NCBI GenBank assembly: GCA_023515795.1 | Contig: JALGPX010000097.1 | Span: 1-54,011 of the forward strand | DNA length: 54,011 bases | From: Amoeboaphelidium occidentale | Taxonomy: Eukaryota; Aphelidiomycota; Aphelidea | Reading direction: 5' to 3' | Shown: piece after piece, positions 20,763 to 45,547 of the stretch | Numbering within the stretch: position 1 is the first letter of the stretch | Layout of the letters: each line of letters starts with the position of its first letter | The notes under the pieces: generated by a model | Databases searched by the model: none | Told to the model about the DNA's origin: nothing | Seen by the model: only the letters and a program-made list of their open reading frames with translations | Position numbers and translations under genes: made by a program

Positions 20763-23700
20763 ATGAGAACCACTCTATTGATACTTTTCATCTTTCATCT
20801 GCTTTTCCTTCATGTTGCATGCCTTGATCATATTAAAAGCTTCTTGTTACAGATCGACTTCACTGTAGTTCAGGCTATTATTGTTCAGAATGGATCGTTG
20901 TTCCACACAACTGGTATTGATATTGTACAGAAGGACACTGATACTGGACTCATAAGAAGAACATTGAGAGCACACAGTCAAGCTGTTCAGAATATGGTTC
21001 TGGTAGACAGGCAGACATTGGTTAGTGTTGCTTGGGATGATCTTCTAGTCGTGTGGGATCTGCCCACAGGATCGATCATCCGGAGAATAAATCTGACACC
21101 AAGGAATTTGTATCCGCAAAAGCTTTCATTCACTGATAGTCGTATAATTGTTGGAAATGCAGAAAATTCACTTACAATTGCGAACTATCAAACAGGGAGG
21201 ATTCTGAACACCCTTCAAACTGGCTCTGGAGTCTTGTCCATATTGGTTCACGATAATCTGATCTATATTGCAAAGAATGGTCCGGCTTATGTTGTAACAG
21301 TTTCTGCATTGAATGGTCTTCTTGAAGGCAGCTATGATGGTAACAGTCGACGCAGTTTGGACTCACATTTGTAGCACTTAATGCTCAGGTTAATCATATG
21401 ATCATATACAAGGATGTCCTTTATACTGGTGGTGACGGAAAAGTTGTGGTAGCTTGGAACGTTGATGATATAGCCATAATAAGGATGTTCAACGGTCATC
21501 AATTCAGCATTCAGTCATTGGTTGCTCAAAATGGGTACTTGTTCAGCGGAGACGCAAATTCCTTTATTTTCAAGTGGAATATTGAAACAGGCGAGTTAGT
21601 GAAAAGGTTTGTTCCGATTATGGAAGGTTTTCTATTGACGATGGCTATCGATGATGCCTTGTATTCCGGCTCAAGTGGTGCCATTGTCGTCAAAAGAGAT
21701 GTCGAGACTGGTGATATTCTAGATGTATTCTCTGGCTTTAACAAGAAACTTCGGGCAATAGCTCGCTGGAAGAATGTTTTAATAAGTGGGGGAGAAGATG
21801 GTAGAGCGCTGTTCTGGGATACAGATAAGAGTGTCGATGAGCCCTTTTGGGTATTATATCCTAACTATGGTTCAGTTTATGCGCTCATGGTACGAGATGA
21901 CAATCTTTACTCTGGAGGAATCAATGCTATTGTAGTGCAGTTTGACTTGATAAGTTTTCAAATGCAATTAAACTTTGTTGGGCACAACGATACTGTCCTT
22001 TCACTTGATGCAGATGATAAATACTTGTTTTCGGCAGGAAAGGATTTAGATATAAGAGAGTGGAACATAACTACTGGCGCTTCATTAAGACAATTTCTAA
22101 ATCATAACAGCGATATCAGTTCAATTCAGAAGCAATCAAATTTCCTTCTCTCTAGCAGCTGGGATACTACGGCTGTATTATGGGATTTAAATGGTGGAAC
22201 AATTTTCAAAGTATATCAAATCAAGGAAACTGTCTACACAGCTATCATGATCGGCGACATCCTGTACGTTGGTTGCTCTACTCTCGTAATGTTTGAAAAA
22301 CAATCCGGCTCAATGATCTTTACTGCTAACGGTGTTTCTGCTGTGTATGACGTTACTGCAGACTCTTTGTTTTTATACACAGCAGGTCTCGACCCAAATA
22401 TTTATGCTTTGCGACAAGATACACTTGAACTTGTAGCAGCGTTCAGAGGCCATTCAGACAGTGTGTTATCATTAGTGTTAGACAATACTGGGGTACTCTA
22501 TTCAGCAGCTTACGATGGAAGTATGAAGAAGTGGGATATGATATCAAAGAGAGTAGCATACTCTTTTGAACTTGTGTATCGAGGTGTGACTAGATTGCAC
22601 CAATTAGATGGACTATTAGTTGTTGGTCTAAGAAACGGAAGAATTAATGTTTACAACATTGACGATGGAATTGCTCAATATCTTATTCCTGGACACCCAA
22701 GAGCGATTACCTCTTTGATAACGTTTAACGGATCATTGTATTCCACGGGACTTGACGGCGCATTCAGAAAGTTTTCAGATTTGTCAAAACAACCGAGTAT
22801 TCTATTGAATACAACTTCGACTCCTTTGCTTTCTCTATCAAAAAATTCAAGGATGATGTTTCTTCTTGTTGGAGAGTCGGATATTATTTCATACGATCCC
22901 AAGATTTTTATGTTCACTAATTTTTCGTTCTCTATAGCAGTTCCACTTACATGTCTGGCTTCCACAGAGTCAATGATCTTTGCAGGCTCTCGATCTGGAA
23001 ACTTAATAGGCTGGGACATCTCATCACAAAATTTGCAATTCAATTACGCAGGGCATAACGGCCGTCTCAACGCCTTAGCTATAACTGATAAGAATATTTT
23101 TTCATCTTCTGACGATCAGACAATAATTCAATGGTCTATCGATAAAGTTGAGATCAAGCGAAAGTTTGTGAAATCATCTTCGAACCTTGGTCACTTAGGT
23201 CCAGTTAATGACGTATCTGTTTGTAACAACGTCTTGTTTTCTGCGGGATCAGATCTTGTTACTAGGCGATGGAATCTAGAGACTGGAAAGCATGAAGATA
23301 TTTACATTGGGCATTCAAAACCCGTTATTGCACTTCTCTGCTACAACGGATCTGTTTTCTCAGGAAGCCAAGATTTTTCAGTTCTGATGTATAGGCCATC
23401 ATTTCCACCGGCTGGATCATTTCCAACCACAACTTCCAGCTCTCTACAACGACCAACCAGGAGAGATCGCCAAGTAAGACTTTCTCAAAACGAAAGCACA
23501 GGAAACTCTTTTTCTGTGCTTCTGAGTGTTGTTTATGTTGTTATTTCTATTCTTGTGGGATGTGTATTGCTGATTTATGTATCGAACAGACTGCGCAAGA
23601 AAGAAATAAGTGAGCCGAAAAGTCCTGGAACCGATGATCAAAGTGGAAGAACTGACAGTTCCATCACAGATCTTGAGACCTTGATGAACACTTCTTTGGG

Positions 23701-24397
23701 ACTATCTAAGCACGCCGCATTAGAGTTTGATTCCAAAATGTTTCGACCTTCAAAAAAGATTGCTTCGGGAGGTGGAGGGGAGCTTTACATCTCTCAGGTT
23801 TTGAGTCCTTTACTAGCGAAAACATCTGGAAATGAGGTTATCCAGAAAATTGTTCATGTTAGGTCAAAGCAAGCAGAAGAAATTTTTCACAACGAGGTTG
23901 CAATCATGGTTATGCTGGGTGTATATCCATATTTTTGTAAGATATATGGCTACACTCTTCAACCTTTGTCGATGATTCTGAAGTTTTATACTGGCGGATC
24001 TCTCTCCGATTTTATAAAGAAAACATCTTTCACAGCTAGAGTTGATGTCAAGATATTAAGGGAGATAGCATCTGGGTTATCTGTAATGCATTCACATTAT
24101 CTTGCGCACTGTGATATGAAACCACAGAATGTTCTCGTGGAGATTATTGATAATGTTCCCTGTATAGCTATTACTGATTTCGGTATCACAAGGATTCTGT
24201 CTGATAAGATATTGGCTTCAAAAAAATTCAATGTGCTGAGTACTAAAGGTCTTAGTGTTCATTACGCGGCTCCTGAAGCATTTACAATTTTTAGGAGTAA
24301 AGTTTACGTGAAAGCAGATTTCAAAAAGTGCGACATTTATTCTTTTTCTTGTATTTTATATGAAATGTTGGGCAGAAGATTAACATGGAATCAATAG
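20763..24397 (+). CDS. WD40-ectodomain receptor protein kinase 1
   Basis: Two exons (20763-21339, 21375-24397) are joined across a 35-bp phase-1 intron (GTAACA...TGTAG), giving 1199 residues. A signal peptide (LLILFIFHLLFLHVACLDH) is followed by about 21 WD-like repeats of ~41 residues (for example DDLLVVWDLPTGSIIRR, SFIFKWNIETGELVKRF, RRWNLETGKHED), enough for three seven-bladed propellers. Then come one transmembrane helix (~905-930, VVYVVISILVGCVLLIYV), a conserved juxtamembrane motif (TDLETLMNTSLGLSKHAA) and a kinase domain from ~985: glycine loop IASGGGGEL, lysine in VIQK, HCDMKPQN catalytic loop, TDFGI, AAPEAF, DIYSF. The protein stops at RRLTWNQ, before subdomains X-XI. By topology it is a plasma-membrane receptor kinase; the ligand is unknown. 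It lacks the four introns shared by its paralogues. Its stop codon lies 4 bp from that of the convergent GH114-like gene. Confidence 0.9.
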
Positions 24398-24401
24398 ATC
24401 T

Positions 24402-25193
24402 CTAGCATGTTTTTGGCGTCTCCAAACCGCTCATTGTTGATCTAAATATTCCATGAATGCCATTCTCCTTCCAAACTTCACACGCTCTATAATTTTCTTT
24501 AGTTTCAACATTGAAAACTCTCTTGTTATCGCCCGATAATTGCTTGAATGCGTTACACTTGCCATGTCTGAAGCAATCCGAAGTCACAAAGACATCAAAC
24601 AAGACCTTTGATTCTGGTAGAACAAAGACAGACTGCAACCCAGTTTTAAAACCAGCGAAACGTGTATGACCAGACAGAAACTTCATGTATCTCAAGATCG
24701 TTTGTTCATCAATCTTGTAATCTAATTTAATTCTACGAATATCATGATGAAAGTTCCATAGAATCCCCGTGCAATTAAATTTTCTAGCTCTTCTGATTCT
24801 TGCCATGACAAACTTTCTCAATATTGCAGTATCATTGATTTTGATATAATTGGCAGAGATCTTGTCCTTGTAAGGAACACTCAGAGCCGAAGAGTCAAAT
24901 GCAGACTGATCCTTGTCCCATGCGTATATCAAAACAGCATGAAACCTGCAAAAGAGATTCTTGGCTTTAACAGGCCCAGCGATAGTCTCAGCAGACGCAA
25001 ACAGATAGTCAACGTGACGAGCATTTGTGATATTAACATTTTGACTATCAAATGTGATATCACACTTTGCAGTTTTGTTCCAATCCTTGGGAACAACAAC
25101 AAAATCACCATCATATGGAGCACATAGACCAACACCAGCCATAACTACGACAGCGACAAGATATATAACTCTAAAAGCACAAGGTTGCATCAT
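24402..25193 (-). CDS. Secreted GH114-like protein (second family member)
   Basis: 263 residues, with a signal peptide (FRVIYLVAVVVMAGVGLCA). The domain parallels the C-terminal part of the protein at the window start: ARHVDYLFASAETI, LFCRFHAVLIYAWDKDQSAF, RARKFNCTGILWNFHHDIRR, FAGFKTGLQSV and NKRVFNVET. Here the acidic residue of ILWD is Asn (ILWNF) and the NEQC-like strand reads FVTSDC, so GH114 catalysis looks doubtful. It has no Pro-rich linker. Four or more Cys (LFC, FNC, SDC, GKC, ACE) suggest a disulfide-stabilised extracellular fold. A carbohydrate-binding role is possible. Confidence 0.75.
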   Translation of the reverse strand: MMQPCAFRVIYLVAVVVMAGVGLCAPYDGDFVVVPKDWNKTAKCDITFDSQNVNITNARHVDYLFASAETIAGPVKAKNLFCRFHAVLIYAWDKDQSAFDSSALSVPYKDKISANYIKINDTAILRKFVMARIRRARKFNCTGILWNFHHDIRRIKLDYKIDEQTILRYMKFLSGHTRFAGFKTGLQSVFVLPESKVLFDVFVTSDCFRHGKCNAFKQLSGDNKRVFNVETKENYRACEVWKENGIHGIFRSTMSGLETPKTC

Positions 25194-25280
25194 TAATCTA
25201 AGATATTGTTACAGAGACGCTCAAACGCTGTGACACAGGGATGACTTGTGCAACCTGAAAACGACGTCGTAAATTTATTC

Positions 25281-25601
25281 CTAGAATCTGTCATCCTTAA
25301 AATCGTCCCACTTGAGCCTCCTTCTGGCCTCTTCCTTTGCCCATGCGCTCATTTCATCTTCAGGCTTGTAATAGTTTAGCACAAAGAACACTAAAGTCGT
25401 CCCACCAAAGAGATATTGCCAAATTATTTCCGGAAAAAGCTTCTTCCTTCTGTACCCTGGCGGTGCAGGCTAAACAGACAAAGTAATAAGACAAATACTT
25501 CAAAGCGAATGAATTACGGGTATATTGAAAAGGTGTCCAGTTGGTTCGTTGTAGCCTTTGTAATGGCCACCGGAAGCGAATCTCTTAAACACGCGGATCA
25601 T
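25281..25601 (-). CDS. Complex I subunit NDUFB11/ESSS-like
   Basis: A two-exon gene of 90 codons that a plain ORF scan misses. Exon 1 is 25601-25518 (MIRVFKRFASGGHYKGYNEP then TGHLFNIP). A 48-bp intron (25517-25470, GTAATT...TTTAG) follows, and exon 2 is 25469-25281 (PAPPGYRRKKLFPE, then a membrane helix WQYLFGGTTLVFFVLNYY, then KPEDEMSAWAKEEARRRLKW). The pattern GGHYNEPxGxLF...PPG...YYKPDxxxxxWAxEEAxRR fits the single-helix accessory subunit of the mitochondrial complex I membrane arm. The basic N-terminus serves as a presequence. It shows that the organism has respiratory complex I. Confidence 0.82.
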
Positions 25602-25687
25602 TCGAAGGAAACGAAGGACTGTGAAATAGAATCAGATTTTTAATTAAAGAATTACACAAAGATAGGACCATCCTCATGATTAACATG

Positions 25688-26345
25688 TCAGAACGTATCA
25701 ATATCAGCAGGAATGCCAAAGTTCTTCTCAAAAGCATCCTGATCCATCATGAACTTGTCTCTACAATAGGACTGCAGCGCAAAGATGTTTTCTGTCCACA
25801 AGTTGACGCTTTCCTTCAGAGTGGAAATCTGTTTCTTTTTTTCTTCGTACGCTTCCGGATCGTTAACTTCGTACTTTTTCAGTTCAGCTGAAACCTTTGC
25901 AACTTCGGATTCTAAGCGGGACAATTCCTTCAGCTTTTCGTCCCTTTCAGCGCTCTCAACTCTCAGCTCACTTTCCTTAGTAATTCTTTCTTCAACTTTT
26001 AAAAGTTCCTGTTCAACTTCTTCCAATTCATTCGTAAACTTTTCCAATTTGTTCTGTCTGGTGATTTTCAGTGTGGATGGGAATGACCAGAAGTAATTCG
26101 AAGTTCCGATTTTCTCCATTTGGATTTCACCATCAGCCACGAGCATCTCCAGAACTTCCTTGACACTCTGCACGACGATGCCCTTTTGCTTCGGTGCAAT
26201 TTTCTACATACCGAAATCGCAGTTAGCCTCGCCCTGAGGAATGTACCTCGAGTTCCTTAAGAGTGTAAAAGTCCTGAGACTCATGGAATATTTCCAACAT
26301 CTTCTTTGACTTTTCCTCAAATGATAATCCCTTCTTTTTTGTCAT
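25688..26345 (-). CDS. MND1: Meiotic recombination factor MND1
   Basis: Two exons: 26345-26247 (MTKKKGLSFEEKSKKMLEIF, then HESQDFYTLKELE) and 26203-25688, across a 43-bp phase-0 intron (26246-26204, GTACAT...TGTAG, with CTAAC as a possible branch site). The 204-residue product matches the usual Mnd1 length. Landmarks are KKKGLS at the N-terminus, the winged-helix part (KIAPKQKGI, SVKEVLEMLV, IGTSNYFWSFPS), a long coiled coil, and the C-terminal WTENIFALQSYCRDKF and FGIPADID. Mnd1 works with Hop2 to help Rad51/Dmc1 strand exchange, so this species very probably has meiosis. Confidence 0.95.
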
Positions 26346-26364
26346 GTTTCGGAAACAGAAAAGA

Positions 26365-26373
26365 GTTGAAACA
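26365..26373 (-). promoter_or_regulatory. TGTTTCAAC motif upstream of MND1
   Basis: On the minus strand TGTTTCAAC ends 19 bp before the MND1 ATG at 26345. Confidence 0.35.
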
Positions 26374-26428
26374 AAGCAAGCTGCGCGATCGCTTCAACGA
26401 GGTGTTCTGCTGTGAAGGCGTTTATTTT

Positions 26429-26896
26429 CTATTCAGGCTGTTGTTCCAGTTGCGCTTTCAAAGATTTGATCTCCATGTACGCTTGTGATAGTTCCGACAA
26501 GGCTTTCATGCATACCTTTTTACCCTTCTGAACTTCTTGTCTCAACTGAGATATTTCGTCTGATGTACTGGTTTGACTCATAATGATGTTGTATAAGTGA
26601 CCCCGTAATGTTCTTATGACAGTATCCTTCTTGATCAGCTGTGCTTTCAGTTGATACTTCTCTTTGATAAAATCTTCCATATCAGTACTTCGACGCTCGA
26701 TCATTTCTAGTCTTCTTTCAATGTCTGTTAGGGTACTATTAGCTTTGATATCACTATGTTGCTCAAGCTCATTCTGTAAGTGTTCCAACTTCTTCCGAAC
26801 TTGATCAGATTGTTCCTTGATCTTTTGTGTGCTCCACTTTGTGGTATAATCAATAACGGAGTTGGTATCACTTGTTTCAGAAGATGTATCATCCAT
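26429..26896 (-). CDS. Small coiled-coil protein, unknown
   Basis: 155 residues, ATG at 26896. Almost the whole length is predicted coiled coil (QVRKKLEHLQNELEQH, IERRLEMIERRSTDMEDFI, ISQLRQEVQKGKKVCMKALS, EIKSLKAQLEQQ). The N-terminus is acidic and Ser/Thr-rich. There is no signal peptide or membrane segment. I do not recognise the family; a cytoskeletal, centrosomal or tethering role would suit such a shape. Confidence 0.75.
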   Translation of the reverse strand: MDDTSSETSDTNSVIDYTTKWSTQKIKEQSDQVRKKLEHLQNELEQHSDIKANSTLTDIERRLEMIERRSTDMEDFIKEKYQLKAQLIKKDTVIRTLRGHLYNIIMSQTSTSDEISQLRQEVQKGKKVCMKALSELSQAYMEIKSLKAQLEQQPE

Positions 26897-26914
26897 TTTA
26901 AGAGAGAAAAAAGT

Positions 26915-27442
26915 TTATTGTATTCTTGTTATACTTGCAAACTGTATTGATGGATTAGAAACAAGACTGTAATCGTCTACAATAGTGAGCTTGATCGCAG
27001 TATAGTAATTTACACCTTCAAGTCTGAGCATTCTTAGAAAAGTGCCTCTTTTTGATTTCAGTAGAATACCATTAAAGTTTTTGTCTATAATCAATTCCAA
27101 AGCATTGGTACAATCAGCTGATAGAGCCAAAGTGTATGCATTGTTCCGAAGGACTTGAGGAAATCCTTCTGGTAATGTATTTAGAACCAAACATACTTTC
27201 TCTCCTGATAGTAATTCTAATGTCGTAACAGGTTCATAAAACTGCGTCGTGAATACCAAAGTGAATTTATCGTTTACACAATCAGAGGTATGTGAAACAA
27301 GTGACATATTAGACATTGACGTAAACTTGAATGCAGCACAAGACGTCGCATTATTATAATCGTTTATAGTAAACAGGGCTAGAGGTTCATCAACTTGCGC
27401 TTTGAGCAAATTTATGAAGAGTATCAGCAGAATCAATATCAT
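26915..27442 (-). CDS. Small secreted protein, unknown
   Basis: 175 residues. The first in-frame ATG is at 27442 and gives a standard signal peptide (MILILLILFINLLKAQVDEP); no earlier ATG exists in frame. The mature part has two to four Cys, several N-glycosylation sites (YNNATSC, SNMSL) and alternating strands, like a compact beta-rich domain. No family is recognised. It is divergent from the gene at 27522. Confidence 0.7.
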   Translation of the reverse strand: MILILLILFINLLKAQVDEPLALFTINDYNNATSCAAFKFTSMSNMSLVSHTSDCVNDKFTLVFTTQFYEPVTTLELLSGEKVCLVLNTLPEGFPQVLRNNAYTLALSADCTNALELIIDKNFNGILLKSKRGTFLRMLRLEGVNYYTAIKLTIVDDYSLVSNPSIQFASITRIQ

Positions 27443-27521
27443 CCCAATAACAAGATTCAACACAGAGATGGCCAATCGAGACACAGAATTGTAACATTGA
27501 ATAGGAATTCTTGTTATACAA
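27443..27521. promoter_or_regulatory. 79-bp bidirectional promoter region
   Basis: The divergent ATGs at 27442 (minus) and 27522 (plus) are separated by only 79 bp, which must contain both transcription starts. No TGTTTCA motif is seen here. Confidence 0.5.
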
Positions 27522-28187
27522 ATGTTAAGAATAGCTTCTGCAGCAATTCTGTTATTGTTTCAACTTATAAACTGTCAACAGATCATCATAAAGACGCCTT
27601 ATGATGCCAAGACTGCACTGGCAGACGCTGCTGAACTAAGACCAGGTATCGCACCAGCAAACTTTTATCAATGGAGCGAAGACCCACTAGACCCAGAGAA
27701 TCACTTTCACGATCTGGATAATTCCCATCAAACTGTGATCAGTACATTGTTCAAAGATGGCATGATAAGTTTGAAGTTGCTGAATTTTTGGTATGTGAAC
27801 AAAGTAATAGGAGAGAATGTATTTGTAAATGCTACACAGGGTATCCAAGGAAATGTACATTTTGCGTGTCAGAAAATGGGTTCTTACTGCGCTGAAACCA
27901 TCAAAGAAGTGTTATCATCACGAAATGGAACTGCATTAGTATCTAACGACGTCTTGGAGGATCATTTGGGCGCATACACTAAACTGTTTGTAGAGATTAA
28001 GGTTTATTCTGATAAGATTATGAATGATGTTCAAGTCGAGCAGCATGAACAACTTATTGACATGATCGATTTGTATAGTCACAATATCTTGAACGAAGCA
28101 TACAGAAGAGGAATTCCGCTTGCAACATTGACTGCCTGGTTAGATGAGCAGAATGCTGCTGCAAATGCTACAGCTCCAAACTCTTAG
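27522..28187 (+). CDS. Secreted protein, unknown
   Basis: 221 residues: signal peptide (MLRIASAAILLLFQLINCQQ), then an acidic, helix-rich mature part with two Cys (FACQKMGSYC) and N-glycosylation sites (VNATQG, RNGTA, ANATAP). No catalytic motif or known domain. It lies among several other small secreted proteins. Confidence 0.75.
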   Translation: MLRIASAAILLLFQLINCQQIIIKTPYDAKTALADAAELRPGIAPANFYQWSEDPLDPENHFHDLDNSHQTVISTLFKDGMISLKLLNFWYVNKVIGENVFVNATQGIQGNVHFACQKMGSYCAETIKEVLSSRNGTALVSNDVLEDHLGAYTKLFVEIKVYSDKIMNDVQVEQHEQLIDMIDLYSHNILNEAYRRGIPLATLTAWLDEQNAAANATAPNS

Positions 28188-28338
28188 ATACCTTCGAGGA
28201 GCATTGTTCTTGAATGGAAACTGTCGTGATGTATGATTCGATCCCTTGTTGCTAATCCAACGATCATGTTGCCTTTAGAAAAAGAATATAAACAATGCTC
28301 TCCAAACTTCTCATTTAATTCCAGAAAAGTATCCTAGA

Positions 28339-28668
28339 ATGAGCTTTAACTCAAGTACGCCTGCACAAATCCACCTATCTCGCACAGAAGAGAAGCTTGT
28401 CAAAGCAGAACAGTCACTAGAGAGAAAGATCAAGAGGTTATTCATGCCAAAAACAAGAACAGATAATATCACATTGATGGAGAACTATGATGATTATGAC
28501 CCAACAGCTGAAAATCTACGTGTTAAAGTTACGAAACCAAAGTCAGGAAAGATGTCTAAGTTTGTTTCATCAGATTCGCTTTCAAGCACGTCTTCATCAT
28601 CCTCTAATGAGGAACATACCAAAAGGATTAATCCTGTCGCTAGTTTCCTTGCTGGCAGAAAAGTCTAA
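28339..28668 (+). CDS. Small basic protein, unknown
   Basis: 109 residues, ATG at 28339. The N-terminal half is a charged helix (SRTEEKLVKAEQSLERKIKR); the C-terminal half has a Ser run (SSDSLSSTSSSSSNEEH). There is no signal peptide. A good start context, a stop, and a following AATAAA-like sequence (near 28680) support expression. Function unknown. Confidence 0.55.
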   Translation: MSFNSSTPAQIHLSRTEEKLVKAEQSLERKIKRLFMPKTRTDNITLMENYDDYDPTAENLRVKVTKPKSGKMSKFVSSDSLSSTSSSSSNEEHTKRINPVASFLAGRKV

Positions 28669-28771
28669 CATACTATTCTTAATAAAACAATTTGCATATT
28701 ATGAATCGTGATTAGGACGTTTGTTTCATCTAGCAGGATTCAGCAGAATTTCTTATTTAGAATCACTTGAT

Positions 28772-29332
28772 ATGCGACTTTACGCTCTAATTGCACTGAT
28801 ATCATGTACATATTGTTATTTTGGAAACAGAGTGGCGTTTGTAACAGACAGCGATCTTTCAACTTGTGCTGCAAGAAGACCTATGCCGTATCCAGGATCT
28901 GGTTCTGTGTATCCATTGGGTTTTGACGATCCAGACGCATGTTCTTCAAAACAAGCTGATACAGGATTCTTTCATGAGCTTCGCGATAAGCCTGCGCTAG
29001 CTTTCAATTATCGTTACAACTCAGATTCTTTCATATGGCAGTTCACATGTCTTGTTCAGATTGATATTGGAAATCCAAGTACCAGCATTGTTGGTGCTAC
29101 AGATAACTGCGACGTACGCGATCCTAAAGTTTTAAAGTTTTCTCTGAACAATGAGAATGGTCTTGTTACAGCAACTGGAGCTGGAGGTAAACAATACAGA
29201 ATAATGAAAGACAAAAGCTCAAAGTTAATGATTGCAAAACTCATAAGTCAAGACGTATCTGATGCTGCAATATTGGCGAATGATCAACTAGAAAAGGTTA
29301 TATTCATTAATCACACACCGATAGAAGCGTAA
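28772..29332 (+). CDS. Secreted protein, unknown
   Basis: 186 residues from the ATG at 28772, chosen because it gives a signal peptide (MRLYALIALISCTYCYFGNR). The mature part has about five Cys and reads as a beta-rich domain (SFIWQFTCLVQIDIG, KVLKFSLNNENGLVTATG). Not recognised. It is convergent with the EF-hand gene, with 3 bp between stop codons. TTTGTTTCATC lies about 45 bp upstream. Confidence 0.72.
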   Translation: MRLYALIALISCTYCYFGNRVAFVTDSDLSTCAARRPMPYPGSGSVYPLGFDDPDACSSKQADTGFFHELRDKPALAFNYRYNSDSFIWQFTCLVQIDIGNPSTSIVGATDNCDVRDPKVLKFSLNNENGLVTATGAGGKQYRIMKDKSSKLMIAKLISQDVSDAAILANDQLEKVIFINHTPIEA

Positions 29333-29335
29333 ATC

Positions 29336-31470: not shown

Positions 31471-31583
31471 ATAATCGAGTATCTAGTGAAATTAATTAAC
31501 TAAATGACAATTTTTGAATTCGAAACAGTTTCGCTTGACTGTTTGCTCCTCAAGCTTTTTTCAAAGCGACGACATCGAATAAA

Positions 31584-32625: not shown

Positions 32626-32708
32626 CTATAAAAGAAACCTCATTCAGTTTCATTTCGATTTTTCCATCGTGTGGTGAATTTCCATGTGAAACAAATTTCC
32701 ACAGCGAA

Positions 32709-33750: not shown

Positions 33751-33764
33751 TCTAACTACTCATC

Positions 33765-36700
33765 ATGAAACAACATGAACTATTCAAAGCCTGTGTAGTA
33801 GTATCATTCAGCTACTTCGTATCTGGTCTTGAGCATGACAAAAGCTTTCTAGTTCAAGATAGTTTTGGAAGCGTGGCCTGCTTAGCTGCTTACAACGATT
33901 CTGTGTATATCGCAAATTCAAACGATGTAGTTCAAAGGGATACTGAAACAGGAGATATACAGAGGACATTCAGAGCTCATCAGAACTCCATTGTATCGTT
34001 TATTATTTCTGAAGACTCTAGGATGATTACATCGGCGTACGATGATTTGATAATTATTTGGAACCTTCATACTGGTTCGATCTTGAAAAGGATTTTTGTC
34101 GGAGCATCCAATACCCAGATCCAGAGCATTTCATATCAGAACGGAAAGATTATAATGGGAGGAGCTGATCGCAAAGTAAGGCAGCTTGATTTGGCCACTG
34201 GTCGAGTATTGAAAACTTTTGGTAAGAGAAATGCCTTGAACGCACACTAAAATTCCTCTAGATCTCAATGAATTTATCATGAAAGTTTTAGCACAAGATG
34301 ATCATGTATTCGTTGCAAAGACAATGGCGCCCTTTGTCATCAAAATGTCGATTTTGGATGGTAGACCTTTGATGTTTTACACAGGCCACTCTGAGTCGTC
34401 GGCTTCTATCCACTTGTATGAGAATATTTTGTTTTCTGGGTCAGTAGATTCATCTATACTGAGTTGGGATGAGAGCAGCGGGGTATTGATTCGATCATAT
34501 CAAGCGCATTTCGGCTTATTGTACGTGGTCGTTGTCTACGACGGACTTCTTTACTCCGCGGGCCTAGACAGAAGAGTGATTCAGTGGAATATTGAAACAG
34601 GCCAAATAATCAAAACATTTTCCTCATCGTCATTTACACAAGCAATAATGTCTTTGGCATATTTACCCCAGACGTTGTTTTCTGGATCTGCTGATGCTAC
34701 AGTAGTGAAATGGAATACTACTACTGGTGATGCTTTGATATCATACAAACGGAACTTTAGGAAACAGATAGTTGTTGGTGCATGGAGAAATTTGGTTTTT
34801 AGCGGCGGAGAAGACGTTACAATCAGGATCTGGGACTCATCTATTGATAGTTTGGATTCTTTCTCAGTGCTCTTTACCGATACAGAGTTTGTCTTTGTCT
34901 TGCACGTTTACAAAGATTTCCTTTTTTCTGGTGGACCAAGCAATTTATTACGCCAGTGGGATCTAGTGGAGTTAGAGTTGACGGCAAAGCTTGAAAGTTA
35001 GTTTTGCGCATAATGGAAATTAAGATTTAGGTCCCACATCAGGCTTCTCTGCCATTGATTCAGATCAGTCGTTTGTTTATGCTGGAGGGCCTCGTGCGGT
35101 TATTTATCGATGGAATATTTCATCTGGAGCTTTGACAAAGTCTTACGTGGGACATGCCGCTGCAATTCAATCAGTGATTATTAATCCTGCATCAATGTAT
35201 TCAGGGTCTATGGATAGTACAATGCGAATCTGGAATATTGAGTCTGGTGAAGTTGTCCGAACTTTCAACAGTAATTTCCGTTTCGATTCAAATAACATTC
35301 TAGGTTTTTACGTTGTTTATGATGTGTTGCTTTCTGAAGATCTTCTCATCGCATGCGCGTTGTCAAGCATGGAGGCGTTTTCATTGACGTCTGGCCAGAA
35401 GACAATCTTTTTGGAAGGTCGGTCCTATCAATCGATTTTATAATTTTTAGAGACTTTTGCATGCACTTGTATTGTGTCAAACGGAAACCGTGCATTCACG
35501 GCTCAAAGCGATGCTTCAATAAGAGTGAGGGATTTGTTTACTTTGAGTATCCTTGAGACGTTCCTAGGGCACTTAGATTCTGTGATTTCCCTCTGCTTTG
35601 ACGACTCATACAATCTGTACTCGACTGGATTCGACGGATCAATTAAGAAATGGAACATGGCCACAAGAAGAGTAGCTTTTTCCTTCGAAGACAGGAATAA
35701 TTCAGTGACAAGTTTATATGCAAACGAAATTAACTTGTTCGTCGGGTTGAGAAAAGGCTCTATCGTTCAGTACAACGTTGATAATAGTTACTTTATGCAA
35801 GCAGCAAATATTCACACTGGTGTGGTTTCTTTACTTCTCGCTGATGACGATTTCATTTATTCCTCTGGGATAGATGGTTTGATCATCCGTCACTCGGCTA
35901 TTGAAATTCAGAATCATACGATAATGCACAATACAGAGGGCAAAAATCTAAGGGGTCTTGCATTTACTAAGTTCCTTATAATTTCGATTGAAGAGGATAC
36001 AAAGATATTGATCTTACCTAAGAACAATACCGGTCTAGTAAGAAAGACAGACGTTCAAATTCCTTTAGTTTGCATTACCGCAAGAGATTCAGAGTTAATT
36101 GCTGGTTCCAGATCAGGAGGTATATATGCTTGGGACATCGAGACTCTGAAATTAAGCTTCGAATTGAAAGGTCATTATTCTCAGGTTAACAGCCTTTTGC
36201 TCGTTGAAAATTGGCTGTTTTCTGCTTCTAGTGACAAAAGTATTATAATGTGGTCATTGCAAGATAAAAATGTGATTTACATTTTCCAAAGAAGATCTGC
36301 CACCGCTTTGGGTCATTTAGGTCGAGTCAATGATGTCACATTTTGTTCAAGTACATTGTTCTCTGCTGGAGCAGACCTATCTGTGCGCCGATGGAACGTT
36401 CAGTCAGGACGTCACGAAGGTGTTTACTTTGGTTTCTCAAAGCCTGTAACAAATGTTCTTTGCTACAATTCCTCACTATTCGCAGGAAGTGAAGATTTTT
36501 CTGTTTTGATGTTCAATCCCAGTCTTCCTCGACAAACAATTTCTTCAATATCAAGCTCAAGGTCTTCAAGATCAGCAAGTACTGAAAGACGTCGAATGGT
36601 CGTGAAGGGAGCGCCTCTTGAAAATTCTAGGGCGATCAACGGTCAAATCCTTCCATATGCCGTTATTTCTGTTATTGTTGTGTTACTGGTCGTAATTTCA

Positions 36701-37516
36701 GTATTCTTATTATACAGAAGAGCGAAAGTAAAGAGCTTTTCGCCATATTCATTAACGACGACTTCCATGACCGCTAGTCAGACTGTTACAGATTTGGAAA
36801 CTGTCGTCAACTCTGTCTTGGGTATCTCAAAACATGCCGCGTATCTCTGGGAAAGTTCCGTTGTTGCTAAAAGTAAGAAACTAGCTACAGGAGGCGGTGG
36901 TGAATTGTTTCTTGCAAAGTTGATGGATTCGAATCTAAGAAGGAGATACGGCGATCAAGTGGTTCAGAAAATTACGTTTGTCAAGAGTAATCTTACGGAA
37001 GATGCTTTTTATCAAGAAGTCGGAATAATGATCATGTTGAATTCTTTTCCCCGCTTCTGTAAAATACTTGGTTACACAGAGAACCCTCTCTCAATGATTT
37101 TGAAGTATTATTCGGATGGTTCACTTCATGAATGGCTTATGAAGAATCGTTACAGCTCCGCAATTTTGTTGAAAATCACGAAAGAAGTGTCTGAAGCATT
37201 ACAGACAATGCATTCATACTATTTGGCACATTGCGATTTAAAGCCTCAGAATGTTTTAGTACAAGTTGAAAAAGGTATTCCTTCTTGCTCTTTGACCGAC
37301 TTTGGTATTGCCCAAATTCTTTCGGATACCATCATTGCGGCGAAGGCATTCAATTTAATCAGCCTAAGAGGTCTTTCAATTCCTTTTGCTGCACCAGAAG
37401 CTTTCAGTCATTTCAGATCAAAAAAATATAGTGGGGCTGATTTCAAGAAATTTGACGTGTACTCTTTGGCATGTGTTATGTACGAAGTAATCAGTAGAAA
37501 AACGCCATGGTCTTGA
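33765..37516 (+). CDS. WD40-ectodomain receptor protein kinase 2
   Basis: Five exons: 33765-34221, 34262-34996, 35031-35270, 35304-35417, 35451-37516 (457, 735, 240, 114 and 2066 nt), all separated by phase-1 introns of 33-40 bp; the product is 1203 residues. The intron at 35271-35303 is a stop-free multiple of three and is recognised by comparison with paralogues. Signal peptide, about 21 WD-like repeats (DDLIIIWNLHTGSILKR, RVIQWNIETGQIIKTF, DLSVRRWNVQSGRHEG), helix ~917-941 (AVISVIVVLLVVISVFLLY), juxtamembrane TDLETVVNSVLGISKHAAY, kinase from ~988: LATGGGGELF, VVQK lysine, FYQEVGIM (alpha-C Glu), HCDLKPQN (~1108), TDFGI, AAPEAF, DVYSL. It ends at RKTPWS, directly before the region that should form alpha-F to alpha-I. 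Polyadenylation-like AATAAA occurs near 37540 and 37560. Confidence 0.92.
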
Positions 37517-37730
37517 AACTGTTCACTTGCGATTGCAATAAAAGCTATGAATTTACCTAAATAAATCCATCGGAGTTCTTAATACGGTTGGTATCTGACT
37601 AATTATTACCCTAGATAGTCTGATCGAACTTCAAAGTGATCTGTTTCATTCTTGAATGGCAGCGGACTGAAGTCAAACATTTGTTGAACGATCGTTTCTG
37701 GTGGTAGATCAAAGACGTCATAAAGAGGCA

Positions 37731-37738
37731 GTTTCAAC
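37731..37738 (+). promoter_or_regulatory. GTTTCAAC motif upstream of WD40 receptor kinase 3
   Basis: Ends 11 bp before the ATG at 37750. Confidence 0.35.
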
Positions 37739-37749
37739 TTATTTCAGCC

Positions 37750-40700
37750 ATGTTCAGCTTACTTATTTGGATATTTGCTACTCTAACATTGAGCACTTCA
37801 CTTCAACATGAAAAGAGTTTCTTGGTGCAGGACGGTGCTTCAGTGATCACTACAATAGCTATTTACCAGAACTCTATACTACTGACGTCTTCCAATGATA
37901 TCATACAGAAGGATATTGGAACAGGTCTGCAACAAAGAGTATTTAGAGCTCATACAAATCAAATTCTGTCGTTTGGGCTGACCAATGATTCCAGAATGAT
38001 AACGGCTGGTTGGGATGACATGATCATCGTTTGGGATTTGAAATCTGGATCAATAATGAAGAGGATATGGTTGGGATCATCTGACACAAATGTCCAGAGT
38101 GTATCATTCTGGAATGAACAGGTTATAACTGGAGGTGATGATGAGAAGATCAGAAGAGTTGATTTAACAACCGGAAGGGTGAGCAGGACCGTGGGTAAGT
38201 TATAAGTACAATTTTGCTGAGTCCCGTAGATTTAGGAGAACAAATCTTTTGTGTTCTTGCATATGGTGATTTTGTGTTTTTGGGCAGAAAGAGCTTTGAT
38301 GCTGAGATTGCGAAAATCCGTCTTCTGAACCTGAACTTCGAAATTGGATTAGATGGGCATTCTAATACTGTCATCTCATTACATCTTGATAACAACATCT
38401 TATTTTCAGGATCAGTTGATACTACAATTATAGCATGGAATCCGGACACAGGACAGCAACTACGAAAATACTTTGGGCACGTTTCGTATGTTTGGGCTTT
38501 AAAAACAGTCGGGGAACAGCTTTATTCTGCTGGAAATGATCAGGTCATATTCAAATGGAATATCAATGATGGCACTTTGATCCAAAAGTTTCCTCGGTAT
38601 CATATCAATAAGATCACGAGTTTGGCCATAAAAGATGATTCAATCTTTAGTGGAGCATTTGATACAGAAATCGTAAGATGGAACTTAACCACATATCAGT
38701 TCATACAAGTGTACAAAACCAGCCGATTAATGCTAAGGTCTGTCGTTGTCTGGAATGATTTTGTTCTAAGTGGAGGTGACGAGTCTGTGGTTGCAATATG
38801 GGATAAGTCAACAGATAGCATAGAGCCATTATCAATTTTAAGTGGCCATCTCAAACCTATTAATACCATGTTTATTTCTGGAGACTGGCTTTTTACAGGA
38901 AGCAGTGATGCCACGGTAAAACAATGGGAGTTGATAGACCTAACACAAATTGGCGAGTTTATCGGTAATTTCCAGCTCTATTTGCTAACATTCAGGACAT
39001 TTCGATACTGTTTCGGCCTTGACAGTTAGCGAAAATATCCTTTACTCCGGAGGAAACGACTTGGAGATAATCTTGTGGAATATCTCATCGAAAGCGAAAA
39101 TTGACGGGTTAAACAGCCACACAGATGAAATAACATGCTTGACAGCAGAAAAAGAGTTACTGTTTTCGACATCGTATGATGAAACTGTAAAAATTTGGAA
39201 TAGGGATACAGGAACTCTAGTTCAAAATTTTCAAGGTGATTTTCGGCGGTAAGAGACTGATTTTTTTAGCCACAAACTTTGTTAAAGCAGTTGTTGTACA
39301 GGAAGATCAAATGGTCATTGGCACTTACGGCGGATTATTCAAAATTCAGATTTCAACGCTTTCAAATATAGCGGAACAACTTGGTAAGATCTTTATAGCA
39401 CATTTAACACATTTAGAGAATTTTGCATGTACTAGTATAGTCTGGAGAAACCCTCGTATTTACAGCGCATACGTTAACGGCGTGATAAAAGTAAGCGATT
39501 CCGAAAATCTGAACGTTTTGGGATTCTTTTATGGCCATCAAAATATTGCTTCTTCTCTGTGCTTTGATACCTTCGGAACATTATTTTCGGCAAGTTTCGA
39601 TGGATCTACCAAGAAGTGGGATTTGGTAACAAGAAAAGTCGCATTTTCATTTGAGAATAGGCGAAACTCTGTCACTTCCCTTGCCGCTTCTGGAAACTTT
39701 CTTTACACGGGATTACGGAATGGCTTAGTCAACAAGTATGTCACAGACAATGCGATGCTGTTAGTATCCAGCAAGTTTCACGAAAAAGATGTTACATCAT
39801 TGATTATTGGGGGAGGTNNNNNNNNNNNNNNNNNNNNNAACTTTCTTTACACGGGATTACGGAATGGCTTAGTCAACAAGTATGACACAGACAATGCGAT
39901 GCTGTTAGTATCCAGCAAGTTTCACGAAAAAGATGTTACATCATTGATTATTGGGGGAGGTCGGCTGTATTCTACAGGTCTTGATGGACTGTTAATCAGT
40001 TCAAATTTTAGTTTTGATCAAGAACCTTCAAGAGTCTTCATTTCTCCCAACGCAACACTGAAGAGTATTATATTTCATTTAAACTCATTGGTCTTCATTG
40101 AGAATGATAGACTGATACTTCAGTATCCATTTAATGGCACCATGTCTACAACTATTTTTGTTGAGTCCAATGTTCCGATTACTTGTTTGGCGGCCGATGA
40201 TGAAAGGATTTATGCAGGATCCATATCTGGCGCCGTACTTTCTTGGAATGCTAATAATTCTTTATTCCAATATGAACTTAAAGGTCATACATCGAAAGTT
40301 AATTACATTCTTCTGAATTCAAATCACCTCTTCTCCGCTTCTGATGACCAGAAAATAATTAAGTGGTCATTAATTGATAGAGTTACGACCTTAGAACTAA
40401 AGCGAAATTCACCTAACACACTCGGACATTTGGGTCCAGTTAACGCATTGTCGTCATGCAAAGAATATTTGTTTTCAGGAGGTTCAGACCTTACTGTGAG
40501 GCGATGGGACGTTGAAACAGGAAAACATATCGATGTCTATTTTGGCTTTTCCAAAGTTGTAACAAGCGTTCTGTGTTTTAACAATTCGGTGTTTGGTGGT
40601 AGCGAAGACTATTCTGTGCTGCAATTCAGACCGGGGTTTAAGAAAGATGAATCGACATTCTCCACCCCAGAATCTACTAAAGCTTTTGATAACAGAAAAA

Positions 40701-41626
40701 GAACAAAAGCTGTCGCAGCACCTGCAAAACAATCTTCTTCAAGAACTGAATCCCTCCCCTTAATCATATCTTTTTCAGGTGTCGCTTTCTTGATATTTCT
40801 TGTAGCGACGATCTTTGTTTATTTGAAGAAGTTTGCTAGCAGAAAATCACCTTTAGAATCCAAAAAGACTGAGACTGACGATTGTGGCTTCACGGTTACA
40901 GATTTACAAACTGTAGTCAACACCGTTTTGGGAATATCTAAACATGCTGCATTCGTTATCCCAAATTCAGCATTAGCCAAGCAAAAGAAGATTGCTACTG
41001 GAGGAGGAGGCGAAGTTTATTTGGCAAGAATAATGGAACCTGACTTGAGGACAAAGCACGGTGATGTTGTGATCCAGAAGTTTGTTTTCATTAAGAACAG
41101 CGCCAGCGAGGATTCATTCTACCTGGAAGTAGGCATTATGATCATGTTATTGGCATATCCTCATTTCTGTCAGATAATCGGCTACACTGAAAATCCTTTA
41201 TCTATGATTTTGAAATTCTATCCCGATGGATCTTTGGAAAGCTGGCTACGTAAAAATTCCTGCAACAAGAATGTCATTGGTAAGGTTTGCAAAGATATTG
41301 CAGGAGCTTTACGTATCATGCATAGCCTTCATTTGGCTCATTGTGATATTAAGCCTCAGAATGTTCTCATTGAAGTTATGAACGGCGTTCCTTCATGCTT
41401 CTTGACCGACTTTGGTATTACGCAAGTTCTTTCTACTGAAATAATTGCAGTCAGATCATTCAATGCGATTAATTTGAAAGGTCTATCGATTCCTTATGCC
41501 TCACCAGAAGCTTTCAGTCATTTTAGGTCAAAAGCTTACACAAGAGTCGATTTCAAGAAGTATGATGTTTTCTCGTTGGCTTGTATTATGTATGAAGTAG
41601 TAACGCACAAAGCACCATGGTCTTGA
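37750..41626 (+). CDS. WD40-ectodomain receptor protein kinase 3
   Basis: Five exons: 37750-38194, 38230-38964, 38996-39235, 39270-39383, 39417-41626, with phase-1 introns of 31-35 bp. An assembly duplication plus 21 N (144 bp, in frame) lies in the last exon; without it that exon is 2066 nt, exactly as in receptor kinase 2, and the protein is 1199 residues. Signal peptide (MFSLLIWIFATLTLSTSLQH), about 21 WD-like repeats (DDMIIVWDLKSGSIMKR, QVIFKWNINDGTLIQKF), helix at ~909-935 (LIISFSGVAFLIFLVATIFV), juxtamembrane TDLQTVVNTVLGISKHAAF, kinase from ~986: IATGGGGEVY, VIQK, HCDIKPQN (~1103), TDFGI, ASPEAF, DVFSL. It ends at HKAPWS. Head to tail with genes 2 and 4, about 200 bp apart. Confidence 0.92.
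39695..39961. other. Scaffold gap (21 N) flanked by a 123-bp duplication
   Basis: 39695-39817 and 39839-39961 are the same 123 bp with one mismatch (GTC vs GAC, Val vs Asp), around N at 39818-39838. This is an unmerged contig overlap inside receptor kinase 3, not a real extra propeller blade. Confidence 0.9.
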
Positions 41627-41822
41627 AACTGGTTTAGTTCGCGCATAAACCATGAAATAGAGTATCATCAATGATTAGGATCATAATGGCTACCATGAAA
41701 CTTCAGCCTAGATAAATCAGAGACGCTTTGCTTCAAAGGCGCTGTAAAACTCCGTGTGTGCAGTCTAAACTTACACACTTCAAACGCTTGCCGTCAAACA
41801 ACTTTATTTCACACTTATTAAC

Positions 41823-44800
41823 ATGTTGCTCTCGTTGTTGACAATATTAGCCTTTATCCCACTGGCTTCATTACTGCAGCATGAGAAGAGCTTCAAGTTT
41901 GATAACGCTGCCTCTTCTGTATTTGCTCTAGTATTGTACAATCGATCATTGCTGATAACATCCTCGAATGATGTAGCACAGATTGATATTGAAACAGGAA
42001 TCTTACAGAGAAAGTTCATTGCACACACAGCTCGTTTAAGCAGTATCTTGGTTGTCAACGGCTCCAGAATGATCACATCAGGGTCAGATGACATGATCAT
42101 CGTTTGGGACTTGGTAACTGGTTCAGTGTTGAAAAGAATCTGGCTACAATCTTCAAGAACATCTCCTTCAGATTTCTCATTAGATGGCAATAATTTGTTT
42201 GTAAGTGGTACCGATAGTTGGGTGAGGATCGTAAACATGGTCTCTGCGAAAGTTGTGCAGAGCTTCAGTAATTTCGTTCTTTGCCGCTGATCATTATTTT
42301 AGATGTTAATGCAGCTGCAAATGTGATTGTTGCACAAGATAACTACTTTTATGTTGGCAAGGAAGAAGTAAGCTCTCAGCTGGAAAAGTATTTTGTCACC
42401 GGATCGTTGATCTTGGACTATATGGGCCATACCAATTCTGTATTCTCTTTACTTCTCTGGGAGGAGACGCTATTTTCTGGATCGTCTGACAGCAAAATTA
42501 TCTGCTGGGATAAAGCCAATGGCCAAATGATCAGAACTTATCTCGGAAGCACTGATGCAACCTTTGTTTTATCTATATATGATGATTATCTATACTCTGC
42601 CGGTCAAGATCGTTTCATTATGAAGTGGAATATTGAATCGGGAAGTATTGTTGAAACTTTTCCGAAACCTCACACTGGTTTCATCTGGTGTTTTGCCTTC
42701 GAGCCAGGTAGTTTATTCTCTGGTTCTAGTGACACGACTGTCATCAGATGGGACCTTAATACTTCTTCAAGAGTATTTACATACACTGGCCGTAATATAC
42801 AGCTGAGATCCGTTGTATTGTGGAGAAACTTGGTTATAGCAGGTGGTGATAATCTGGCCTTGACAATTCAAGATACGACCCGCAATTCCATCTTCCCAAT
42901 TGAGGTGGCTTCAGGCCATTCAAAAGACGGAATAGTTTGTATGATTTTACTGGATGATGTTCTTTTTTCAGGAGGTGTCGATGCAACTATCAGAAGTCGA
43001 AATTTAATCGATTTCACTGACCTTAACATTTACTATGGTACTTTGGTTAAATATGGGTTCTAACCTTTAAGGCCATTATTACACTGTGACCTCGCTTGTT
43101 TCAGACCTTCTGTACCTGTATTCTGGCTCTGTAGATACTACCGTTATCCGATGGAATATCTCCTCAGGGTTAATCGACAAAGAATACATTGGACATGATG
43201 CAATGATACGAACAATTAAAACTAGAGAGAATTTGCTTTATTCTGGAGCTTCTAATTCTAAAGTGTTTGTGTGGGAAAAAGAAAAAGAAAACACTTTTAC
43301 TATTCTCTATTGTAAGTGTTGACTGAATTTTAACAGTTTAGCTTCCACTGACATCAGCTCAATTTTCATTTATGGCGATGCTCTTCTGATCGGCGCTAGG
43401 GGCATATCCTCCGTGTCTGTTATTACTTACGAGATTTTAGCTTGGCAACAAGGTGGTTTCTTATCTATGTTAATTAACTTTGGGTAGAACCTCATCAATG
43501 TATGGAAATAGTTGCGACTGTAAATCGGATCTATACAGCACACAGTGATGGTCTTATAAGAGGAAGGGATATTGGATCGCTTACTATTATAGAGTTTTTT
43601 CAAGGGCACACTGATACGGTGGTTTCAATAAGCTTAGATAATGCGAACGTTTTATTTTCAACTTCATTCGATGGCTCGGTAAAGAAATGGAATATGGCAA
43701 CTAGAAAAGTTTCATTTTCTTATGAGAATCGAAATGGTTCCGTTACAGCATTGACTGCGTCTAATGGTATCTTGTTCGTAGGTACAAGAGAAGGTATTAT
43801 CAATTCTTTTATCATTTCAACTTCTTACATCATCAAATCTACCAATTTCCATAAAAGTTCTGTGACATCGTTAGCGCAATCTGATGATTCAATTTTCTCT
43901 TCTGGGATGGATGGTAGGATCATTGGGCTCGATAAGGTAGACTATTCGAGCTCAATTGAATTGTATAATGCTGAATCCTTTCCTATCACAACTATGACCT
44001 TGAATGCAATGAATTTGATTTTGGTTAAAGATGAAAACGAGATCATTATTCTTCCCAGATTGAACTTTAGCTTTGATGCCAGAAGTATTGAGTCTAATCT
44101 GCCGCTTGTCAGTATTGTAGCCAATGGAGATATGATGTTTGCTGGCTCAAGAACAGGTTCAATTATTGCATGGGATGTAAAGTTTTTGGAAACTTCATTC
44201 ACCCTTGAAGAACACAACTCTCAAGTTAATTTCCTTTTAATAACAGATTCTTTCCTGTACTCAGCATCAAACGACAAAACCATCATTAAATGGTCTATAG
44301 AACGAAGGCTTCCAACGGTGTCATTCAAGAGGCTCTCTGCTAGTGCACTAGGTCATTTAGGTCCTGTTAATTCCTTATCTTTATGCAAAGGCACTTTGTT
44401 TTCTGCTAGCTCTGATTTGACCACACGCCGATGGAATACACAGACTGGAAGACACGATGATGTATATTTTGGTGCTTTAAAGTCTGTTACAACTGTTGTC
44501 TGTTACAATGGATCTGTTTTTGCTGGCAGTGAGGATTTTTCTGTACTTATGTATGTACCGATTCTACCGGTAAATGCGGATACAAAGATCGCATTGAAAA
44601 CTTCAAGAAACAACCTACGCAGCGTGAGAACTAAGATTGCTATTAGATCAACCTCTTTGAGCTCAGAAACATCACAGACTGCTCTTATTTCCGGTGGAAT
44701 ATTTGGCGCCGTCATACTTGCAGCAGCTGTTATGGCTTATTTCTTCCTTTTATCAAAACGAAAGATGAGAAAAACTGGTAAAAATTCATCAACCGAACAA

Positions 44801-45547
44801 GAATTCTCAGAATTCACTACCGATTTAGATACAGTTGTGAATACAGTGATCGGAATATCTAAACATGCTGCTTACTTAGTTGAGAACTCCAGCATCGGTA
44901 CTGTCAAGAAAATTGCAAGTGGCGGCGGAGGGGAAGTTTATTTAGCTCGTGTTATGAAATCTTTTTCGAAAGAAAAAACCGGAGTTTTGGTTATCCAAAA
45001 GAAAATATTCGTGAAGGATCGCATAACTGAAGAAGCTTTTTATCAAGAAGTTGGAATTATGATAATGTTATCACCATTTCCAAACTTCTGCCGTATTATT
45101 GGTTACACAGAGAACCCTTCTTCAATGATCTTGCAATACTATCATGGTGGTACTTTGCAGAGCTGGATCCAAGGCAACAAGATTGGTCAGGCTGTTATAA
45201 TGAAGATCTCGAAAGAAATTTCATCAGCTTTAAATGTGATGCATTCCCATTATTTGGCTCACTGTGATCTTAAACCTCAGAATGTGCTAATTGAAGTTTT
45301 TGATGGAATTCCCACTTGCTATTTAACCGATTTTGGTATAACGCAAGTTCTGTCAGAAAAGATTTTAGCGTCTCGTGCGTTCAAAGTTATCAATCTTCGG
45401 GGATTATCTGTATGGTATGCTGCTCCAGAGGCTTTCAGATGGTTCAGGACCAAAGTATACAATGGAGTAGACTTTAAGAAGTTTGATGTCTATTCTTTTG
45501 CGTGCATTGTCTTGGAGCTTGTGACCAGAAAAACTCCATGGAGCTGA
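41823..45547 (+). CDS. WD40-ectodomain receptor protein kinase 4
   Basis: Five exons: 41823-42267, 42303-43037, 43072-43311, 43342-43452, 43488-45547 (445, 735, 240, 111 and 2060 nt). Introns are phase 1 and 30-35 bp; the 30-bp intron at 43312-43341 is the shortest in the window. The product is 1196 residues. Signal peptide (LLSLLTILAFIPLASLLQH), about 21 WD-like repeats (DDMIIVWDLVTGSVLKR, RFIMKWNIESGSIVETF, DLTTRRWNTQTGRHDD), helix at ~907-932 (LISGGIFGAVILAAAVMAYF), juxtamembrane TDLDTVVNTVIGISKHAAY, kinase from ~982: IASGGGGEVYL, VIQK, HCDLKPQN (~1100), TDFGI, AAPEAF, DVYSF. It ends at RKTPWS. AATAAA follows at ~45588. Confidence 0.92.

What the first reader, a model, noticed from the sequence alone, without database searches (positions are those of the whole stretch)
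20763..45547. Four receptor kinases with a ~21-blade WD40 ectodomain
Seen: all four ~1200-residue products have a signal peptide, about 21 WD-like repeats, one membrane helix, and a kinase domain with Gly loop, Lys, Glu, HCDxKPQN, DFG and APE. Known: WD40 propellers are almost always intracellular, and receptor kinases normally carry LRR, lectin, Ig or PQQ-type ectodomains. Inference: these are membrane receptors whose sensor is three stacked seven-bladed propellers, a design I do not know from any described family. Rapid tandem expansion suits a role in sensing partners, hosts or rivals.
Basis: partly seen in the sequence, partly recalled or inferred. Interest (0 to 1): 0.92.

Follow-up and report, generated by a model that had tools for sequence, protein, structure and literature searches.

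The report
Triple-propeller receptor kinases of an aphelid
A single-celled parasite of algae carries a large family of receptor-like proteins built from three ring-shaped sensors, one membrane anchor and an unusually short protein-kinase domain, a build not seen in the databases searched here outside this organism and unnamed environmental relatives.

Summary
The window lies in the genome of the aphelid Amoeboaphelidium occidentale. Four + strand genes (20763-24397, 33765-37516, 37750-41626, 41823-45547) encode ~1200-aa proteins: N-terminal hydrophobic stretch, 21 WD blades, one TM helix, conserved juxtamembrane motif, kinase. An AlphaFold2 model of a full-length paralogue has 83 strands, i.e. 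three seven-bladed propellers. The genome holds at least 64 such kinases, 61 with the WD ectodomain directly upstream; every family hit with an NCBI name is A. occidentale, the others are unnamed metagenome proteins.

(1) In all 37 copies whose ends I held, the kinase stops 1-8 residues after the tryptophan that follows helix F: helices G-H-I are absent and no downstream exon was found, while catalytic residues are invariant in 33 of 33. (2) The catalytic loop is HCD, i.e. non-RD, as in plant pattern-recognition receptors.

'Rapid tandem expansion' is not supported: the four are 35-42% identical and fall in different clades. A 2022 genome paper, which I could not read, is cited for receptor-like kinases of aphelids, so part may be in print.

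Best reading: type I membrane receptor kinases; location, ligand and activity unproven.

The parts
20763..24397 (+). G1, WD40-TM-kinase gene; exons 20763-21339 and 21375-24397; 1199 aa
   Evidence: gene model
23513..23575 (+). G1 transmembrane segment (residues 906-926)
   Evidence: hydropathy
23660..24394 (+). G1 juxtamembrane motif plus truncated kinase (ends ...LTWNQ, stop)
33765..37516 (+). G2, WD40-TM-kinase gene; exons 33765-34221, 34262-34996, 35031-35270, 35304-35417, 35451-37516; 1203 aa
36647..36709 (+). G2 transmembrane segment (residues 915-935)
36779..37513 (+). G2 juxtamembrane motif plus truncated kinase (ends ...KTPWS, stop); AF2 model mc606842f2b23
37750..41626 (+). G3, WD40-TM-kinase gene; exons 37750-38194, 38230-38964, 38996-39235, 39270-39383, 39417-41626; contains a 21-N gap
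40763..40825 (+). G3 transmembrane segment
40889..41623 (+). G3 juxtamembrane motif plus truncated kinase (ends ...KAPWS, stop)
41823..45547 (+). G4, WD40-TM-kinase gene; exons 41823-42267, 42303-43037, 43072-43311, 43342-43452, 43488-45547; 1196 aa
44687..44749 (+). G4 transmembrane segment (residues 911-931)
44810..45544 (+). G4 juxtamembrane motif plus truncated kinase (ends ...KTPWS, stop)

Best explanation
These are four members of a large, lineage-specific family of type I single-pass receptor kinases of Amoeboaphelidium occidentale. SHOWN by sequence: one open frame holds a triple seven-bladed WD propeller, a stalk, one TM helix, a variable linker, a strongly conserved juxtamembrane motif and a kinase with every catalytic residue but no helices G-H-I. 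INFERRED: the propeller tower faces outside (or a compartment lumen) and binds protein or glycan ligands, plausibly of algal prey, neighbours or self. Ligand binding clusters receptors; the stalk, TM and linker act as an unspecific tether (mean pairwise identity ~16%) that brings the juxtamembrane-kinase modules together. As non-RD kinases they may not need activation-loop phosphorylation (recalled for the class) and may phosphorylate, or dock, a shared downstream partner. The missing G-H-I surface may be supplied by a partner or replaced by the conserved FRxK segment after APE.
Against: No expression, localisation or activity data. Sequons are at or below chance and ectodomain cysteines few (4-8), so secretion is not corroborated; the N-terminal stretches of G2 and G3 are weakly hydrophobic. 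In 9 likely orthologue pairs with both regions, the ectodomain is less similar than the kinase in 5 and more similar in 4: no arms-race signal. Mutating either residue of the APE-Glu/Arg pair strongly impairs PKA (PMC3415842, passages), so activity cannot be assumed. The third propeller had no fold-search row of its own and is inferred from strand count.
Confidence: 0.62

Rival explanations
1. Receptors of an internal membrane: the propeller tower samples the lumen of the ER or a digestive compartment and signals stress or content, as IRE1 and PERK do.
For: Same order, lumenal propeller-like sensor then TM then kinase (IRE1/PERK recalled). Sequons at chance level do not favour a surface glycoprotein.
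Against: At least 64 divergent copies are far more than a housekeeping stress sensor needs; no RNase or other domain follows the kinase, the ORF stops 1-8 residues after the final Trp in 37 of 37 copies with a held end.
Confidence: 0.15
2. Decoy or scaffold receptors: the cytosolic part is a pseudokinase-like platform that binds ATP or a partner kinase but does not transfer phosphate, because helices G-I and the Arg partner of APE are gone.
For: Helices G-I absent in the 37 copies looked at and in the model; PKA mutants of either residue of the pair are badly impaired (PMC3415842, passages).
Against: Pseudokinases usually lose catalytic residues (recalled); here Gly loop, Lys, Glu, HCD, Lys, Asn and DFG are invariant in 33 of 33, with kinase dN/dS 0.18 and 0.08 in two pairs.
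Confidence: 0.25
3. The kinase is completed by a further exon that was missed, so the domain is an ordinary one.
For: The genes have short introns, so a small last exon could be overlooked. My profile came from 8 kinases of this genome chosen as its best Pkinase matches, and its reach to tyrosine-kinase-like C-lobes was not tested.
Against: That helix G-I profile scores 12.9-52.8 bits in leave-one-out tests on the 8 but at best 1.7 bits in up to 900 nt after the stop of 37 copies; only 234 and 197 nt separate G2 from G3 and G3 from G4. The genome-wide Pfam search lists no C-terminal Pkinase piece on the window contig, while it does for some other split kinases (best candidates only). Of six NCBI models of A. 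occidentale paralogues, five end at the same place; the sixth (P0004) is a fused, partial model.
Confidence: 0.03
4. Bacterial-type WD40 Ser/Thr kinases acquired by horizontal transfer.
For: WD40-kinase proteins of bacteria or unnamed origin are among the next-best hits.
Against: Order is reversed: of 19 non-family hits that I picked, the kinase motif was found in 16 and lies N-terminal in all 16, although one (P0073) gave no WD match with my pattern; about 18-32% identity; genes here carry introns.
Confidence: 0.05

Closest known systems
Plant non-RD receptor kinases (FLS2, EFR, XA21)
   Same: Ectodomain, one TM, juxtamembrane, non-RD kinase with Cys before the catalytic Asp (PMC3411088, passages); large families (recalled).
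   Different: WD propellers in place of leucine-rich repeats; helices G-I absent; common descent was not tested.
IRE1 and PERK (recalled)
   Same: Propeller-like lumenal sensor, TM, kinase.
   Different: Three full WD propellers; truncated kinase; no RNase; at least 64 copies.
Bacterial WD40 Ser/Thr kinases such as that of Thermomonospora curvata (PkwA, name recalled)
   Different: Opposite domain order in the 16 hits checked.
Receptor-like kinases of aphelids (Mikhailov et al. 2022, Curr. Biol.; not held)
   Same: Same organism group; A. occidentale is one of the three aphelid genomes that PMC10608142 ascribes to that paper.
   Different: Unknown: I read only one citing sentence on the kinases. 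Whether the WD ectodomain or the truncated kinase is described there I cannot say.
Eukaryotic-like kinases (ELKs)
   Same: Shared core up to helix F without the EPK G-H-I subdomain (PMC3415842, passages).
   Different: These keep an EPK-type activation segment with APE; in ELKs it is short and other helices follow F.

Membership tests
Eukaryotic protein kinase (as defined in PMC3415842) | Core catalytic residues (Gly loop, Lys, Glu, H-x-D, Lys, Asn, DFG) | tested here: met
   33 of 33
Eukaryotic protein kinase (as defined in PMC3415842) | Extended activation segment ending in APE | tested here: met
   APE Pro 33/33, Glu 32/33
Eukaryotic protein kinase (as defined in PMC3415842) | G-H-I helical subdomain with the Arg that pairs with APE Glu | tested here: not met
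   37 of 37 distinct copies with a held stop end 1-8 residues after the Trp; no G-I profile hit downstream; AF2 model ends with helix F
Non-RD receptor kinase | Cys or Gly in place of Arg before the catalytic Asp | tested here: met
   Cys in 33 of 33
Non-RD receptor kinase | Role in recognising microbes or other non-self | not testable with these tools
   needs experiment
Plant RLK/Pelle receptor kinases | Kinase monophyletic with RLK/Pelle | not tested
   no reference tree was built; the 50 VIA rows shown are tyrosine or tyrosine-kinase-like kinases by their titles
WD40 beta-propeller | Seven four-stranded blades with WD repeat sequence | tested here: met
IRE1 | C-terminal RNase domain after the kinase (recalled) | tested here: not met
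   ORFs stop at helix F
Bacterial WD40 Ser/Thr kinases | Kinase N-terminal, WD40 C-terminal | tested here: not met
   Reverse order here; kinase N-terminal in 16 of 16 comparison hits with motif, 19 examined

The most novel reading that the evidence does not exclude
An active eukaryotic receptor-kinase class that works without the G-H-I subdomain: at least 64 non-RD, triple-propeller receptors forming a recognition repertoire in a unicellular parasitoid, convergent with plant pattern-recognition receptors and breaking the rule that the activation segment and the G-H-I helices come as a pair.
Probability: 0.35. Interest if true: 0.85.

Novelty: new variant of a known kind. Interest (0 to 1): 0.62.

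Why it matters
[quoted passage not shown] Aphelids are close to Fungi, so a repertoire of at least 64 receptor-type kinases with a triple-propeller sensor gives a direct handle on how such a parasitoid may recognise algae or its own kind. The kinase is also a natural test of whether the G-H-I helices and the Glu-Arg pair, held to define eukaryotic protein kinases, are needed for activity.

Tried and rejected
Missed last exon: rejected by the helix G-I profile and the short intergenic gaps. Splicing artefact: rejected, G1 joins about 17 blades, TM and kinase in one frame, and L059 and L060 are single frames. Pseudogenes: rejected for the intact copies; broken or partial ones exist (for example C73:68831 and C97:85067 with stops, and several short rows). 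Match ends say nothing about truncation, because the query itself ends at helix F; I use only held ORF ends and full-length Pfam profiles. N-glycosylation as topology evidence: no excess over shuffles. Variable propeller face: loops ab and cd and strand d vary most, bc least; WD40 fold constraints alone may explain it, so I claim nothing. Position near contig ends: 46 of 50 within 20 kb against 35.3 expected, on the 23 of 35 contigs whose length I had; contigs may simply break in repeats. dN/dS for a third pair was dropped because the region split failed. In one search, G1/P0001 has no kinase to compare, and for L040/P0116 the ectodomain boundary was set badly (550 columns). The kinase tree had an unsettled bootstrap and 33 of 88 inner branches drawn open. 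A kinase-group placement was not attempted. Literature: aphelid+genome+WD40+kinase gave 1 paper, on small GTPases (listing); aphelid+receptor-like 3 (listing; part of one Discussion and passages of another seen); aphelid+receptor kinase 1 (passages); WD40+receptor-like kinase+early-diverging fungi 0; the six-term ectodomain search 7, none relevant by title. Passage searches: PMC11767097 and PMC6299283 hold neither kinase nor WD40; PMC8657485 and PMC10406608 hold kinase but not WD40; PMC10608142 holds kinase once and no WD40. IRE1/PERK features and the name PkwA are recalled.

Full report
OBSERVATION. The four genes are real. Removing short GT-AG introns gives four proteins of about 1200 residues without internal stops, aligning over about 1190 columns at 35-42% identity. 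Pfam finds WD40/propeller models in the window exons tested and a Pkinase match in the G1, G2 and G4 exons given. The join of WD blades, TM and kinase does not depend on splicing: it lies within one open frame of G1 (1017 codons) and within single frames of 1211 and 1248 codons in two paralogues.

ORGANISM. The window is contig C4 of an 11.3 Mb genome in 204 contigs. Proteins P0002, P0005 and P0127, named Amoeboaphelidium occidentale at NCBI, match loci of this genome at 100% over 690-720 aa. It is therefore that aphelid (phylum Aphelidiomycota), a group described as parasitoids of algae (PMC10608142, abstract start).

TOPOLOGY. A hydrophobic TM segment occurs in 33 of 33 distinct last-exon ORFs, and its kinase side is the more positive in 33 of 33 (mean net charge +3.4 against -0.2). 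With the N-terminal hydrophobic stretch this points to a type I protein. Sequons are not enriched, and the N-terminal stretch of G2 and G3 is weakly hydrophobic; no predictor for signal peptides was available.

FAMILY. In this genome at least 64 kinase stretches (46% identity or more, 220 aa or more) belong; 61 have an ectodomain stretch just upstream. Of the other three, one is cut by a contig start, one has an in-frame stop and one (C199) shows only weak WD matches. Of 75 ectodomain stretches of 260 aa or more, 72 have a kinase just downstream; 26 of 26 neighbouring pairs within clusters share a strand (from the lists; lower bounds, because the search scores only its best candidates). More divergent kinases (31-43% identity) include some whose full-length Pkinase match also stops early, for example C185 at 211, C6 at 214 and C177 at 212 of 263; several have a weak WD stretch upstream. 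In three protein searches (14 and 89 with capped candidates) every family hit with an NCBI name is A. occidentale: 15 of the 67 family rows bear that name and the other 52 are metagenome proteins without an organism name. Family and other hits part at E 7e-147 against 1e-37 and 2e-9 against 4e-7 (identity 40% or more against 28% or less); the first non-family row has E 1e-49 at 21% identity, and one short family fragment lies below it. Whether other aphelid proteomes are in that database is unknown to me.

EVOLUTION. Kinase and juxtamembrane motif are conserved among paralogues (61% and 64%), blades 14-21 less (45%), stalk, TM and linker hardly (about 16%); propellers 1 and 2 are the most varied of the folded parts (34% and 31%, ten full-length proteins). 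dN/dS is 0.23 and 0.20 for the ectodomain and 0.18 and 0.08 for the kinase in two pairs (dS above 1 in the second pair, so rough). Ten copies compared have a likely metagenomic orthologue (best match), G1 and G3 among them; G2 and G4 do not (best 58% and 64%). Among nine pairs with both regions the ectodomain is the less similar in five and the more similar in four. G2, G3 and G4 fall in different clades of a 93-row kinase tree, with moderate support and an unsettled bootstrap. So the repertoire looks old and kept by purifying selection; 'rapid tandem expansion' is not what these four show.

MECHANISM. Most likely a set of type I receptors with a varied propeller tower outside and a shared juxtamembrane-kinase output inside; clustering through an unspecific tether would explain why stalk, TM and linker are free to vary. 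Ligand, location, activity and partner are inference. A scaffold without phosphotransfer (0.25) and an internal-membrane sensor (0.15) remain open.

PRIOR ART. PMC10608142 (part 1 of its Discussion) says that earlier data [Mikhailov et al. [quoted passage not shown] That paper is not held. So receptor-like kinases in this group are in print; the WD ectodomain and the truncation may or may not be. My literature searches turned up no description of either, within an open-access library only and mostly from listings and passages. [quoted passage not shown]

VERDICT. Real, well supported as architecture, larger and odder than reported because of the kinase that stops at helix F. A new variant of receptor kinases, not a new kind of system.

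Noticed in passing
window 39818-39838: 21-N gap inside G3, flanked on both sides by a near-identical stretch of roughly 120 nt; relative P0020 has it once, so this is an unmerged contig overlap.
   Followed up: yes
L042 and L045 (C85 and C119): Closest paralogue pair: kinase dS 0.28 but ectodomain dS 0.85, and the L045 kinase groups with L042 and P0017 rather than with P0022, whose best own-genome match is L045. Suggests gene conversion or ectodomain swapping.
   Followed up: partly
G000 C85:3885-5327, C97:34035-35480, C185:10744-12705, C6:964-2877, C87:27253-29199, C76:40866-42794: Divergent kinases (33-43% identity) each with a weak WD stretch beside them: perhaps an older branch of the same design. 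For C185 and C6 the full-length Pkinase match stops at 211 and 214 of 263; the ends of the others were not examined.
   Followed up: partly
G000 C177:13338-14084 and C15:8926-9576: Related kinases (38-39%) in very long open frames (4694 and 3198 aa as listed); architecture not examined.
   Followed up: no
G000 C143:103590-104537, C197:41711-42661, C123:178-1128: Ectodomain stretches of the family with no kinase within 600 nt downstream; possible soluble or broken copies, one at a contig end.
   Followed up: no
window 24405-25193 (-): ORF with a glycoside hydrolase GH114 domain (Pfam E 6e-15), converging on the end of G1.
   Followed up: no
window 3204-10964: RabGAP-TBC matches in three ORFs (3204-5291 with GRAM, 5343-7007, 9165-10964).
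   Followed up: no
window 50080-51570: Leucine-rich repeat ORF of 497 aa downstream of the cluster.
   Followed up: no
window 18052-19560: Glycosyltransferase family 61 ORF upstream of G1.
   Followed up: no
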